NCBI GenBank assembly: GCA_020444165.1
Contig: JAHLLK010000010.1
Location: 47,428-111,427, forward strand
Source of the DNA: Deltaproteobacteria bacterium
GTDB taxonomy: Bacteria; Desulfobacterota; Desulfarculia; Desulfarculales; Desulfarculaceae
Direction of reading: 5' to 3'
DNA length: 64,000 nucleotides
Each line of letters starts with the position of its first letter. The first letter of the stretch is position 1. Of this stretch, positions 1,252 to 52,685 are shown one piece after another. Made by a program: the position numbers and the translations under genes. The notes beneath the pieces were generated by a model. That model searched no databases, was not told where the DNA came from, and saw only the letters and a program-made list of their open reading frames with translations.

Positions 1252-1449
1252 AGAAAGCCATTCCCGGGGTCCCCCCATAAGCTGAGAGCCTTGTGGGGGT
1301 GGGTCCTTGGCTTTCTCTTCTGGGAATTTGCCGAAAGCAAATTTCGGCAAACTCACGAAATCGCGAATTATCTGCGTTAAACGCGATTTCGGCGGGCCGT
1401 CCTGGCCCGCTTAGGAGCCTATCGGCGCCATTACTTCGACAGGCTCCTA
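1252..1449. repeat. Modular multi-hairpin repeat, copy A (thrS-infC gap)
   Basis: Five consecutive hairpins fill most of the 291-bp gap between thrS and infC. A 9-bp outer stem (AGAAAGCCA at 1252, TGGCTTTCT at 1308) encloses a C-rich/G-rich hairpin and the recurring TCCCCGGGGTCC-like junction. Then come TTTGCCGAAA/TTTCGGCAAA (1327-1351), CGAAATCGCG/CGCGATTTCG (1356-1391), GCGGGCC-GTCCT-GGCCCGC (1392-1410) and TAGGAGCCT/AGGCTCCTA (1412-1449). The last arm contains the TAG stop codon of thrS. The hairpin order and the loops match copies at 8.3, 10.3, 29.5, 42.9 and 52.5 kb although the stem sequences differ. Confidence 0.8.
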
Positions 1450-3324
1450 CTTATCTTCCTCCGGCGGGCGATAACCCGGCCGGGATTCGGTTTGGATGCG
1501 CTCCGCGAACTGGGCCACCCCCTGGGCCGGCAGGTTGCGGCCGCTTTTCAGGCGCGGCGTCACGGTCGCCTCCGTCACTTCCTGATCACCCAGTATGAGC
1601 ATGTAGGGCACCTTCATCAACTGGGCTTCGCGGATCTTGGCCGAAAGTTTTTCGTTCCGGATGTCCAGTTCGGCCCGCACCCCGGCCGCCAACAGCGCCT
1701 GGTGCACCTGGCCGGCCCAGTCATCGGCCCGCTCGGTCACGGTGAGTACCCGCACCTGCTCCGGGGCCAGCCACACCGGGAAGGCGCCGCCGAAATGCTC
1801 GATCAACACCCCGATGAAGCGCTCGATGGAGCCCAGGATGACCCGGTGGATCATCACCGGCCGCTGGCGCCCGCCGTCCGGGGCCACATAGGTCAGGTCG
1901 AAGCGATCCGGCAGGGTGAAGTCGCATTGGATGGTGGCGCATTGCCACGAGCGCTTCAAGGCGTCGGTGAGCTTCACGTCGATCTTGGGGCCGTAGAAGG
2001 CGCCGTCGCCCTCGTTGATCTCGAACTCCCGCCCGCTTTTCTGTAGCGCGGAGAGCAGCGCCCCGGTGGCCCGCTCCCAGTCCTCGTCGCTGCCGATGGA
2101 CTTTTCCGGGCGGGTGGAAAGCTCCAGCGAGTAGGCAAAGCCGAAGATGTCCATCACCTCGGCCACGAAGCGCATCACTCCCAGGATCTCGTCCTCCACC
2201 TGGTCGGGCCGGCAGAGGATGTGGGCATCGTCCTGGGTAAAGGCGCGCACCCGGGTCAGCCCGTGCAGCACGCCGGATTTCTCGTGGCGGTGCACCAGGC
2301 CCAGCTCGAAAAGCCGGAGCGGCAGATCGCGGTAGGAGCGGACCCGGGATTTGTAGATGAGCATGTGGGCCAGGCAGTTCATGGGTTTGATGCCGTAGGC
2401 CGTCTCATCCACCTCGGTGAAGTACATGTTCTCGCGGTAGTTGTCGAAGTGCCCGCTCTTTTCCCAAAGCTCGCGCTTGAGGATGGTGGGCCCCTGGACC
2501 ATCTGGTAACCGCGCTTGACGTGCTCGGTCCGCTCGAAATTCTCGATGAGGGTCCTGAGCACCATGCCCCGGTGGTGCCACACCACCATGCCCGGGCCGA
2601 TCTCGTCGTGGAAGCTGAACAGGTCCAGCTCGCGGCCGAGCTTCCTGTGATCGCGCTTCCTGGCCTCCTCCAACAGCCGGAGGTGCTCCTTCAGCTCCTT
2701 CCGGTCAAAGAAGGCCGTGCCGTAGATGCGGCTCAGCATGGGGCGCTTTTCGTCGCCCCGCCAATAGGCCCCGGCCACCGAGAGGAGCTTGAAGGCCCCC
2801 ACCCGGCCGGTGGCGGGCAGATGCGGCCCCCGGCACAGGTCGGTGAAGTCGCCCTGCTGATACAGGCTCACCGTGGGCTGGGCCAGGCCCTCGATCAGTT
2901 CCACCTTGTAGGGCTCGCCCTCGGCCCGGAAGCGGTCCAGGGCCGCCTGGCTGTCCAACACGCTCATCTGGAACGGCTGGTTGGCCTTGATCAGTTCGGC
3001 CATCTTGGCCTCGATGGCCGGCAGGTCCTCGGGCGTGAAGGGGCGCTCGTAATCGAAATCGTAATAAAAGCCGTCTTCTATGGACGGACCGATGCCCACC
3101 TTCACCCCGGGGAACAACTCCCGCACGGCCTCGGCCATGATGTGGGCGGTGGAGTGGCGCAAGAGATCCAGGGCCCGGGGGTCGCCGGGCAACAGGGGAG
3201 TGACCTCGGTGCCTTCCGCCAACTGGCGGCTGAGGTCCACGACATCCCCGGCCACCAGGGCGGCCACGGCGCGCTTGGCGGCCTTGGGGTCAACGGCGGC
3301 AATGATCTCTTGAGCGGAGGGCAT
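1447..3324 (-). CDS. thrS: Threonyl-tRNA synthetase
   Basis: Class II aminoacyl-tRNA synthetase charging tRNA-Thr in the cytoplasm, 625 residues. Visible parts in order: a TGS-like segment (about 1-50), the editing domain with HSTAHIMAE (HxxxH) near residue 58 and a Cys in DLCRGPHLP near 163, the catalytic core with the zinc ligand Cys in KPMNCLAH and the motif 2 region, and the anticodon-binding domain from about 520. The TGS domain lacks the first roughly 20 residues found in most ThrRS, starting directly at MPSAQEIIAAVDP. No better upstream start is seen. It heads the thrS-infC-rpmI-rplT operon and its stop codon sits in the last arm of a multi-hairpin repeat. Confidence 0.96.
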   Translation of the reverse strand: MPSAQEIIAAVDPKAAKRAVAALVAGDVVDLSRQLAEGTEVTPLLPGDPRALDLLRHSTAHIMAEAVRELFPGVKVGIGPSIEDGFYYDFDYERPFTPEDLPAIEAKMAELIKANQPFQMSVLDSQAALDRFRAEGEPYKVELIEGLAQPTVSLYQQGDFTDLCRGPHLPATGRVGAFKLLSVAGAYWRGDEKRPMLSRIYGTAFFDRKELKEHLRLLEEARKRDHRKLGRELDLFSFHDEIGPGMVVWHHRGMVLRTLIENFERTEHVKRGYQMVQGPTILKRELWEKSGHFDNYRENMYFTEVDETAYGIKPMNCLAHMLIYKSRVRSYRDLPLRLFELGLVHRHEKSGVLHGLTRVRAFTQDDAHILCRPDQVEDEILGVMRFVAEVMDIFGFAYSLELSTRPEKSIGSDEDWERATGALLSALQKSGREFEINEGDGAFYGPKIDVKLTDALKRSWQCATIQCDFTLPDRFDLTYVAPDGGRQRPVMIHRVILGSIERFIGVLIEHFGGAFPVWLAPEQVRVLTVTERADDWAGQVHQALLAAGVRAELDIRNEKLSAKIREAQLMKVPYMLILGDQEVTEATVTPRLKSGRNLPAQGVAQFAERIQTESRPGYRPPEEDK

Positions 3325-3349
3325 GATTATTCCGTACGATCACCAAATA

Positions 3350-51173: not shown

Positions 51174-52415
51174 TTATTCGTAGATCTTCTCGTCCGCGGC
51201 AAAGGCCTCGGCCGCGTCGGCTTCAAAGTCCCGGGGCTCTTTGCGGTTGGCGTATTCCTGATACCACTCGTGGGCGATGATCAAGGACATCACCTCGTTG
51301 GAGCCGGTCCAGATGGAGGCCAGGCCCAGGTCCCGGATGATGCGCTCCACCGGGAACACGTTGGTGTAGCCGATGCCGCCCATGACCTGCATGGCGTTCT
51401 TGGCCACCTTCTGGCAGGACTCGGTGATGAACTTCTTGGTCTGGCTCACCAGCCGCCGGGTCTGGTCCGGGGGGAGCCCCGCGTCCACCGCCCGGGCGGC
51501 GATGTAGGCCTGGGCGCGGCAGGCGTCCAAGAGCATGGCCCCCTCGGCCACCTGGAAGCTCACCCCCTGGAAATGGTCGATGGTGCGGCCAAAGGCCTTG
51601 CGGCGGGTGGTGTAGCCGGTGGCCACCTCCAGGGCGGGCCGCGCCGCGCCGATGGTCATGGCCGCGGTGCCCAGGCGCTCGGGGATCATCATGGTGTTGA
51701 ACACGTCATAGGCCCCGTTGTACCGGCCCACGATGTTCTCCCGGGGCACCACCACGTCGCGGAACACCACCCGGCCCGCGCCGCCGCCCCGGCAGCCCAT
51801 GAGGCCGTAGAGATACTCCACGTCCACCCCGGGGCTCCGGTCCACGATAAAGGCGGTGAGCGCCTGGTGGGGGTGGGACTTGGGGTCGGGGTTGGTGCGG
51901 GCGTAGACCAGGAAGTAGTCCGCGCCCTCGGCCCCCACGATGAAACGCTTCTGGCCGTTCAGGATGAAGTGGTCGCCCTCCTCCCGGGCGGTGGTGGAGG
52001 TGCCGAAAAAGTCGGAGCCGCCCCGGGGCTCGGTGAGGCACTCGGCCGCGAACATCCGGCCGGCCAAAAGGGGCTTGACGTACTTCTCCTTCAGGGCGTC
52101 GGTGCCGTGCTGGATGATGGCGTCGCACACCAGCTCGGCCCCCACCCCGAAGGTGCAGGCGAAGATGTAGCCCAGGACGCCCACTTCCTCCATGACCATG
52201 CAGGTGGCGACCCAGTCCAGGCCGCGGCCGCCCCACTGGCGGGGGTAGCGGCAGCCCAAAAGGTTCCGGCGGCCGGCCTCGCTCAAAAACTCCTTGGGAA
52301 ACTTGATCTTGTCCTGATCCATGTCCAGGATCATCTGCCGGGGCACCCAGGCCACCAGCTCCCGGACCTCCTCGCGGAGCGCTTTCTGCTCCTCGGTCAA
52401 CACAAAGTCGAACAT
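51174..52415 (-). CDS. Acyl-CoA dehydrogenase
   Basis: FAD flavoenzyme of 413 residues oxidising an acyl-CoA at alpha-beta. It begins MFDFVLTEEQKALREEVREL; ECLTEPRGGSDFFGTSTTA and RFIVGAEGADYFLVYART are the flavin and substrate loops, AFGRTIDHFQGVSFQVAEG the FAD-binding Arg/Gln region, and AMQVMGGIGYTNVFPVERI is typical near 350. The catalytic Glu of short/medium-chain enzymes (YEGT motif) is replaced: the text reads IWTGSNEVMSLII. Long-chain and isovaleryl-type enzymes carry the base elsewhere, so it may still be active. It belongs with the acyl-CoA synthetase and MerR genes upstream, split from them by repeat F. Confidence 0.9.
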   Translation of the reverse strand: MFDFVLTEEQKALREEVRELVAWVPRQMILDMDQDKIKFPKEFLSEAGRRNLLGCRYPRQWGGRGLDWVATCMVMEEVGVLGYIFACTFGVGAELVCDAIIQHGTDALKEKYVKPLLAGRMFAAECLTEPRGGSDFFGTSTTAREEGDHFILNGQKRFIVGAEGADYFLVYARTNPDPKSHPHQALTAFIVDRSPGVDVEYLYGLMGCRGGGAGRVVFRDVVVPRENIVGRYNGAYDVFNTMMIPERLGTAAMTIGAARPALEVATGYTTRRKAFGRTIDHFQGVSFQVAEGAMLLDACRAQAYIAARAVDAGLPPDQTRRLVSQTKKFITESCQKVAKNAMQVMGGIGYTNVFPVERIIRDLGLASIWTGSNEVMSLIIAHEWYQEYANRKEPRDFEADAAEAFAADEKIYE

Positions 52416-52492
52416 CTCGCTCTCCCGCGGGCCCCGCCCGCCGCCCCGGAGGCGGCGGGGGAGTCCGGCTCAGGCTATTTGCTGGTTTCCAA

Positions 52493-52685
52493 ACCGCTGA
52501 CAAAGGCCGTCCTGGCCTTTGTCAGCGGTCAGTTGGCAAAAGTGCGATTTTGCCAACTGACACGAATTGTTGTGATTTTAAAAAATCACCACAATTCGGC
52601 GGGCCATCCCCGGGGTCCCCAAACAAGCTAGGCTTGTTTGGGGTGGATCCATGGCCCGCATCAGCCTGTTAGTTAACAGCCTGAT
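52493..52685. repeat. Modular multi-hairpin repeat, copy F
   Basis: H1 ACCGCTGACAAAGGCC-GTCCT and complement (52493-52529), 16 bp. H2 AGTTGGCAAAA/TTTTGCCAACT (52531-52558). H3 CGAATTGTTGTGA/TCACCACAATTCG (52563-52598, one mismatch). H4 GCGGGCC/GGCCCGC (52599-52659) with inner CCCCAAACAAGC/GCTTGTTTGGGG. H5 ATCAGCCTGTTA/TAACAGCCTGAT (52660-52685, one C-C mismatch). H5 encodes the last residues (QAVN) and the TAA stop of the acyl-CoA synthetase gene. Confidence 0.85.

What the first reader, a model, noticed from the sequence alone, without database searches (positions are those of the whole stretch)
1252..52685. A modular hairpin repeat whose stems change but always stay paired
At 1252-1449, 8340-8456, 10270-10502, 29511-29663, 42857-43140 and 52493-52685 (and a minimal form at 8711-8758) the same string of hairpins occurs. 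The constant parts are the loop GTCCT in H1, GGCAAAA..TTTTGCC in H2, the CTCACGAA/GGCGGGCC junctions and the inner CCCCAAACAAGC/GCTTGTTTGGGG hairpin in H4. The stem arms of H1, H3 and H5 are almost unrelated between copies (for example H1 ATGCACGGTGC, ACCGCTGACAAAGGCC, CATTGCACGGGGC), yet each copy's two arms are exact complements. That level of compensated change needs either strong selection on an RNA/DNA fold or a copying process that creates one arm from the other. Copy D and the minimal copy are inverted relative to the others, so function on a fixed RNA strand is not obvious. No transposase is nearby. I know of no named family with this architecture.
Basis: seen in the sequence. Interest (0 to 1): 0.9.

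Follow-up and report, generated by a model that had tools for sequence, protein, structure and literature searches.

The report
Mobile elements conserved as hairpin fold
The repeated hairpin strings are copies of tiny, gene-free jumping DNA elements found in several sulfate-reducer-like bacteria; what evolution keeps constant is mainly their chain of hairpins rather than their letters, although how they fold and jump has not been shown.

Summary
A covariance model built without any window sequence ranks exactly the seven reported sites first in the window. The same hairpin chain (H1-H2-H3-H4, usually with H5) turned up in 14 of 395 phylum genomes, at least one copy read from each, with stems largely replaced yet 94-95% Watson-Crick paired, and nearly invariant TCC loops in H1 and H4 (rows chosen by the model). 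Outside the window many copies have terminal inverted repeats (TIRs) and target-site duplications (TSDs): 3 bp TNA (45 of 67), 4 bp (8 of 20 sites) or 5 bp (8 of 13), by TIR family. So these are MITE-like transposable elements; three TIR/TSD types sharing one hairpin body is unusual. G-T and A-C mismatches are equally common (17 vs 14; 41 vs 42) and orientation to transcription is about even (13 vs 12; cruder model 18 vs 13), arguing for a DNA-level fold rather than a fixed-strand RNA. REP/RAYT features are not met; no Rfam match. One broken IS5/IS1182-type insertion sequence shares the family-3 ends; partners of families 1 and 2 are unknown. How new stems arise is unresolved.

The parts
1247..1449 (+). 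Copy A, between thrS (stop at 1447, minus strand) and an infC-like ORF; H1 1250-1320 carries an inserted hairpin cassette (about 1262-1305); H2 about 1325-1351, H3 about 1357-1390, H4 1391-1410, H5 1412-1449
   Evidence: R2 39.1 bits, E 1.1e-7; thrS; IF-3 domains
8340..8550 (+). Copy B: H1 8340-8366, H2 about 8371-8404, H3 about 8407-8435, H4 8436-8456, H5 arms about 8457-8471 and 8536-8550; no cassette
   Evidence: 83.7 bits
8711..8759 (-). Minimal copy: H1 (CCGTCAAAGGCC arms) joined directly to H4
   Evidence: 25.5 bits, E 1.6e-4
10270..10502 (+). Copy C, family 3-like ends (TTGAAAAAG and CTAGCAGG..CCTGCTAG); cassettes in H2 and H4
   Evidence: 91.9 bits
29517..29663 (-). Copy D, family 3-like, no cassette, upstream of a zinc-ribbon gene
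   Evidence: 101.8 bits
42854..43140 (+). Copy E, family 2 ends (GAGAGCATTGCACGG..GCAATGGTCTC); cassettes in H2 and H4; long H5
   Evidence: 76 bits
52492..52685 (+). Copy G, between acyl-CoA dehydrogenase-like and acyl-CoA synthetase-like genes (its last bases overlap the end of the latter); H1 52493-52529, H4 with cassette to 52659, H5 52660-52685
   Evidence: 83.3 bits

Best explanation
Each site is a copy, mostly old and worn, of a small non-coding transposable element (a MITE). SHOWN: related copies end in inverted repeats and sit between short target-site duplications whose length goes with the repeat family (3, 4 or 5 bp). The body is a chain of four to five hairpins; across 31 representatives the stem letters change but pair, and the loops of H1 and H4 (TCC) hardly change. 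Mismatches and orientation show no RNA strand. An optional small hairpin (CCGGGGTCCCC..GGGGTGG) sits in the loop of H1, H2 or H4. INFERRED: DDE transposases made elsewhere move the copies through their ends; at least three such systems have moved the same body. The body is recognised as folded DNA (a hairpin on single-stranded DNA at forks, or a cruciform) through the TCC loops, so only copies that fold keep transposing. After insertion most copies decay by one-sided changes. New stems arise by paired changes, possibly aided by replication template switching that copies one arm from the other. The factor that reads the fold is unknown.
For: TSDs: 8 of the 9 full-length copies read in single-contig genome G009 have an exact 5-bp TSD; the three 41-46 bp mini forms read also have one; family 1: 45 of 67 exact TNA, shuffled mean 13.5, maximum 26; family 2: 8 of 13 vs 0.6; family 3: 8 of 20 distinct sites, 21 rows, vs 2.7. 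Nested insertion of family 2 in family 1 (L091). Covariation: A1: 91.9% of cells paired; 172 double-change cells vs 60.8 shuffled, 0/500; A2: 102 vs 32.4, 0/500; one measure, further pair types, not above shuffles, 275/500. Loops TCC 100% in H1 and T-CC 94-97% in H4 while many stem columns are 50-70%. No strand preference: G-T vs A-C 198/229, 41/42, 17/14; tandem contexts 13 same vs 12 opposite. Spread: 14 of 395 phylum genomes, at least one copy of each read. IS with family-3 ends: L301.
Against: The window copies show no clean TSD, and H1 is unrelated to H5 in A, B and G (the minimal copy has no H5). The 31 rows were picked and aligned by R1, which favours its own loops and pairs, and unpaired columns as a whole are less conserved (0.64) than paired ones (0.74). 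Only one IS with matching ends was seen, broken by an in-frame stop and in another genome (G015), and the end lists were cut, so others may be missed. PF01609 is absent from 8 of 11 element-bearing genomes and, from G002, G016, G017 and G019; G007 has five matches, none with family ends at both sides. In G009, whose end list is whole, no 1-2 kb element lies between such ends. No result shows a folded DNA in a cell.
Confidence: 0.68

Rival explanations
1. The hairpins are a structured RNA (a mobile non-coding RNA or 3'-UTR element) and pairing is kept by selection on the transcript.
For: Loops are conserved and stems covary; one gene-context count puts 26 of 62 copies between convergent genes, but an earlier, unvalidated coding model gave the reverse, 9 convergent and 23 divergent of 63. 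REP repeats are reported to show G-T pairs suggesting RNA function (PMC3733652, passages).
Against: G-T is no commoner than A-C, G-T is about 1.6% of cells, orientation to genes is 13 vs 12 (18 vs 13), and no Rfam match was found over the copies.
Confidence: 0.12
2. No selection on the fold: arms stay paired only because template switching during replication copies one arm from the other (quasipalindrome correction).
For: New, nearly or fully paired H1 stems unrelated to any TIR seen, in L182, L202, L251 and window A, B, G, minimal; private changes on both sides of a pair 34 (29 Watson-Crick) vs 7.4 expected; the process is known (listing and abstract starts).
Against: TCC loops of H1 and H4 are conserved across genomes, which arm copying does not explain; 207 private one-sided changes persist. 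Divergent subfamily copies may inflate the 34.
Confidence: 0.2
3. REP/BIME-type elements moved as single strands by a RAYT (Y1) transposase.
For: Intergenic palindromes with alternative complementary stems are described for GTAG REPs (PMC3733652, passages).
Against: Y1_Tnp is in 11 of 20 family genomes without tracking the elements: none in element-rich G019, broken pieces in G007 and G017. TSDs are present; GTAG or CTAC at the outer feet in 1 of 31 representatives.
Confidence: 0.03
4. Chance GC-rich hairpins or ordinary terminators.
For: GC-rich genome, mostly intergenic sites.
Against: R2 E-values to 2e-22 from foreign sequences, 16 hairpins vs 0-2 in shuffles, no hits in control loci.
Confidence: 0.005

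Closest known systems
Bacterial MITEs (review PMC10969869, passages read by term search; includes Chunjie of Geobacter uraniireducens, 178-235 bp, 38 copies with TIRs and direct repeats)
   Same: Small, non-coding, TIRs, target-site duplications, intergenic, foldable, some MITEs inserting into one another
   Different: Several TIR/TSD types share one hairpin body whose stems covary and whose two TCC loops are fixed. The terms hairpin and compensat* do not occur in the main text of that review. Chunjie's letters could not be compared (primary paper not held); R1 gives 0 of 13 genomes in the family of Geobacter argillaceus (which warns that an empty answer alone shows nothing)
GTAG and CGTC REPs / BIMEs (PMC3733652, passages)
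   Same: Palindromes with alternative complementary stem residues, mosaic arrangement
   Different: REPs have one tagged short hairpin, often a RAYT, and reported G-T pairs; here TIRs, TSDs, 4-5 hairpins, no G-T excess
IS5/IS1182-type insertion sequences (L301)
   Same: Family 3 elements share the terminal CAGGCTGTTGAAAAAG with L301, and have 4-bp duplications
   Different: The elements hold no transposase and share only the ends with L301. L301's two half-genes score below the NCBIfam cut-offs (137.9 and 93.3 vs 140) but above Pfam's, and L301 shows no exact 4-bp repeat at its ends. IS5 subgroup TSD rules (TNA, YTAR) are recalled, from no call
Double-hairpin elements of fungal and algal mitochondria (recalled; one search listed no such paper)
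   Same: Mobile hairpins with compensated stems
   Different: Organellar, two hairpins

Membership tests
MITE | Terminal inverted repeats | tested here: met
   Families 1-3 outside the window; in the window seen for C and E, not for A, B, G, minimal
MITE | Target-site duplication | tested here: met
   45/67, 8/13, 8/20 exact vs 13.5, 0.6, 2.7 shuffled; not seen in the window copies
MITE | Short, no transposase gene | tested here: met
   About 150-290 bp; no transposase match in the 36 window ORFs scanned, of 168 listed ORFs of 120 aa or more
MITE | Related autonomous IS with the same ends | tested here: inconclusive
   Family 3: L301, broken; families 1 and 2: none seen; end lists were cut
REP/RAYT | Terminal GTAG tag and one short hairpin | tested here: not met
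   GTAG/CTAC inside H1-H4 in 4 of 31 representatives, at the outer feet in 1 of 31; 4-5 hairpins per element
REP/RAYT | Y1 transposase tracking the repeats | tested here: not met
   11 of 20 family genomes have Y1_Tnp, element-rich G019 none
Known structured RNA (Rfam 15) | Match at gathering score | tested here: not met
   Searches (gathering; E up to 0.5): none over the copies
Chunjie MITE | Sequence identity of ends and body | not testable with these tools
   Primary paper not held; host genome not identified

The most novel reading that the evidence does not exclude
A class of transposable element whose inherited unit is a fold rather than a sequence: a chain of hairpins with invariant TCC loops, read as folded DNA by an unidentified factor, that has moved between at least three transposase systems (TIR and TSD types) while its stems are rewritten arm by arm.
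Probability: 0.35. Interest if true: 0.88.

Novelty: new variant of a known kind. Interest (0 to 1): 0.7.

Why it matters
MITEs are usually seen as deletion remnants of an insertion sequence, with folding as a by-product of their inverted repeats. Here folding looks like the conserved trait: one hairpin body occurs with different ends in different genomes, and stems diverge past easy sequence similarity while staying paired. That gives a natural test of whether transposition can select a DNA fold, of how paired arms co-evolve, and of what protein reads a TCC hairpin loop. It also supplies a covariance model that can annotate these elements where sequence search fails.

Tried and rejected
Own genome: not held, so copy numbers come from relatives. 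RNA function: lowered by the mismatch and orientation tests. RAYT partner. IS5-type partner in element-rich genomes: absent from several; of the DDE loci scanned, only L341 (the L301 element again) carries family ends at both sides; L340 holds a family-2 copy beside a broken IS5-like gene, read as chance. The P0 closing-helix count was mis-registered and is not used. Gene context: the first coding model (unvalidated) gave 18 tandem-same, 13 tandem-opposite, 9 convergent, 23 divergent; the second (trained on annotated window genes, 52 of 52 stretches right in-sample) gave 13, 12, 26, 11; so only the lack of orientation bias, not a convergent or divergent preference, is used. The null (190 points) comes from loci all turned to thrS and is too biased to use. 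A first regex missed most of family 3 and was replaced; one search had a regex error and was redone. Cassette as a separately inserted unit with ATCC direct repeats: seen by eye, but exact on both sides in only 2 of 33 H4 cassettes that a pattern caught (one search's pattern caught 7), so not claimed. The central-letter count merges near-identical G009 copies (12 sites, 7 exact) and is not used for family 2. Viral contigs: 3 exact patterns, 0 hits. Plasmids twice and phages once: 0. R1 in 50 genomes of other Desulfobacterota and Geobacter relatives: 0 of 50 (which warns that an empty answer alone shows nothing; the same model rings). Eight paper searches: judged by titles and abstract starts, none listed describes these elements; one search returned none, asking for 2 of 3 terms, listed unrelated papers.
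Full report
1. Check of the observation. All seven sites were read. To avoid circularity I built model R2 from 14 copies of other genomes only. Its seven best hits in the window are the seven reported sites, E 2e-22 to 1.6e-4; the next two (0.014, 0.018) overlap copies G and C. R2 found nothing at E up to 0.1 in 30 control loci, 620,824 bases. 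The window has 16 hairpins with arms of at least 10 bp and loops of 3-7, against 0-2 in 8 dinucleotide shuffles; 12 of the 16 lie in the copies by their coordinates. Several details of the finding needed correction (see observation check).

2. Where it is. The window is chromosomal (thrS, mutL, engA/der, hemC, fatty-acid genes). Its thrS is 73-77% identical to the eight best of the 80 loci kept, which are Desulfarculus, Desulfocarbo and other Desulfarculaceae-like genomes. No whole genome is held for it. Copy A lies between thrS and an infC-like ORF. No transposase matched in the 36 ORFs scanned, of 168 listed.

3. Relatives. BLAST with copy G found 45 matches in MAG SKS1.bin11 (G007; 40 of 124 candidates scored) and 4 in Desulfocarbo indianensis (G002), none in the other 6 genomes searched. 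A pattern for the inner hairpin gave 88 matches in G007, none in the other 7 genomes and none for the reversed control pattern. A family-1 copy used against the 20 genomes of the family matched in 5: G007 72, G016 65, G017 73, G019 36, G003 1, with only 39 candidates scored per rich genome. Model R1 (17 copies, three of them from the window) rang in 14 of 395 genomes drawn from the phylum, with at most 7 candidates scored per genome and strict filters, so these are lower bounds. At least one copy from each of the 14 was read and shows the architecture. R1 was silent in 50 genomes behind named loci (Geobacter, Geomonas, Desulfuromonas, Desulfovibrio, Syntrophobacterales and others) and in 13 of the family of Geobacter argillaceus; both answers warn that silence alone shows nothing. 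Three viral-contig patterns and three plasmid or phage searches gave nothing.

4. Anatomy. From 5' to 3': H1, whose 5' arm in families 1-3 is the inner part of the terminal inverted repeat, with a TCC loop; H2; H3; H4, again with a TCC loop; and H5, a palindrome that holds the terminal repeat. Three well-sampled end types are: family 1 TACCAAT..ATTGGTA; family 2 GAGRCCATTGCACGG and GAGRSYGCTGCACGG; family 3 CAGGNTGTTGAAAAAG. G020 and a second G254 copy show further ends. A small hairpin cassette, CCGGGGTCCCC-stem-GGGGTGG, sits in the loop of H4, of H2 in the other orientation, or of H1 (window copy A). Copies with and without it exist, some with tandem cassettes. By eye some are flanked by short direct repeats (ATCC, AACC), but a pattern count found ATCC exactly on both sides in only 2 of 33, so its own mobility is not claimed. 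One search found about 20 arm variants, but it searched for paired arms in loci fetched by the element, so it shows neither pairing nor confinement.

5. They are transposable. In single-contig genome G009, 8 of 9 full-length copies read, 209-210 bp long, have an exact 5-bp duplication, and the three 41-46 bp mini forms read do too. Over all loci in hand, with copies picked by regular expressions: family 1, 45 of 67 exact TNA (shuffled mean 13.5, maximum 26); family 2, 8 of 13 at 5 bp (0.6); family 3, 8 of 20 distinct sites at 4 bp (21 rows, one site in both orientations; shuffled 2.7). In L091 a family-2 copy is inserted in a family-1 copy with a repeated AATAT(G). Duplication length goes with end type. 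The window copies themselves lack clean duplications, as may be expected of old copies.

6. Which transposase. For family 3, G015 holds a 1.3 kb element with CAGGCTGTTGAAAAAG at both ends (L301) and a transposase gene split by an in-frame stop, whose halves match Pfam DUF772 and DDE_Tnp_1 above cut-off and NCBIfam IS5 and IS1182 models below cut-off. It shares only the ends with the small elements and has no exact 4-bp repeat around it. The end list was cut (seven genomes searched, places shown only for G002 and part of G015), as was that, so other such IS may exist. For families 1 and 2 no partner was seen; G009's end list is whole and holds none. Of 11 further element-bearing genomes 8 have no DDE_Tnp_1 gene; G007 has five matches, none with family ends at both sides. 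Y1 (RAYT-type) transposases do not track the elements.

7. Pairing. In 35 family-1 copies, 91.9% of 2375 cells pair (shuffled 84.5) and 172 cells have both sides changed (60.8 shuffled; 0 of 500); slid controls are far lower. In 17 copies of several families, 94.2% pair and 102 cells are doubly changed (32.4; 0 of 500), while one measure, further pair types, is not above shuffles (34 vs 33.7). The structures were drawn from these sequences, so the slid control favours them. With one representative per genome and family or stem variant (31 rows, six from the window, picked and aligned by R1): 981 Watson-Crick, 17 G-T, 14 A-C, 23 other; H1 loop TCC 100%, H4 loop T-CC 94-97%, many stem columns 50-70%. 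But unpaired columns as a whole are less conserved (0.64) than paired ones (0.74), so it is these two loops and a few closing pairs, not all unpaired bases, that are fixed, and the choice of rows by R1 favours its own loops.

8. RNA or DNA. If the + strand acted as RNA, G-T pairs should be tolerated more than A-C. They are not: 198 vs 229 in 95 family-1 copies (a few positions are shared by a subfamily), 41 vs 42 in 80 distinct copies, 17 vs 14 in the representatives. Of 106 copies, 62 could be placed between called genes: 26 convergent, 25 tandem (13 in gene direction, 12 against), 11 divergent; 32 were unclear and 12 too short (the strand caller was right in 52 of 52 stretches of the genes it was trained on). 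A cruder first model gave 18 and 13 tandem, 9 convergent, 23 divergent, so I draw nothing from convergent against divergent. A fixed-strand RNA is unlikely and a DNA-level fold fits better; folding itself was not observed.

9. How pairing is kept. Fixed loops with changing paired stems argue for recognition of the folded form during the active life of a family. Individual copies mostly decay on one side (207 private one-sided changes), yet private changes on both sides of a pair are commoner than chance (34, of which 29 Watson-Crick, vs 7.4), possibly because divergent subfamily copies are included. New paired H1 stems unrelated to any end seen (L182, L202, L251; window A, B, G, minimal) suggest arm-to-arm copying as well. 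I favour selection on a DNA fold for transposition, with template switching as a source of new stems; both are inference.

10. What is known. Rfam gives no match over the copies. By the titles and abstract starts that eight paper searches listed, none describes such an element. The MITE review (PMC10969869, passages seen) describes TIRs, direct repeats and stable folds and mentions Chunjie of Geobacter uraniireducens; the Chunjie paper is not held, so kinship is untested. REP families with alternative complementary stems are described in PMC3733652 (passages seen), where G-T pairs were often observed, unlike here; GTAG or CTAC stands at the outer feet of 1 of 31 representatives. I file the elements as MITEs of a new variant.

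Noticed in passing
L413, L419, L431 (G370), L433 (G296) and the lists of G211 and G389: A different repeat, CAGGCTGCTGAAAAAGYC...AGCTTTTTGAGCAGCCTG, occurs many times; in G211, 15 of the 16 listed places below 0.81 Mb are on the + strand and the two listed above 0.85 Mb on the - strand (list cut there), as if tied to replication direction. G389 is mixed.
   Followed up: partly
window 34956-35034 and 38145-38211: Two long hairpins unrelated to the element (the second read), probably terminators; Rfam's miRNA and plastid hits on them are below gathering score.
   Followed up: partly
L340 1268-1455 and beyond: A family-2 copy lies within about 50 bp of a broken IS5-like transposase near a contig end in G007.
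   Followed up: partly
G017 loci such as L211, L212, L214, L217, L221: Many copies lie at contig ends, so near-identical copies probably broke the assembly and true copy number is higher.
   Followed up: no
window A, B, G and minimal copy: H1 is unrelated to H5 within A, B and G (the minimal copy has no H5), unlike families 1-3; the origin of these ends is unexplained.
   Followed up: partly
L096: Chimera: 5' half of family 2 (H1-H3) and 3' half of family 1 (H5), suggesting recombination or nested insertion between families.
   Followed up: no
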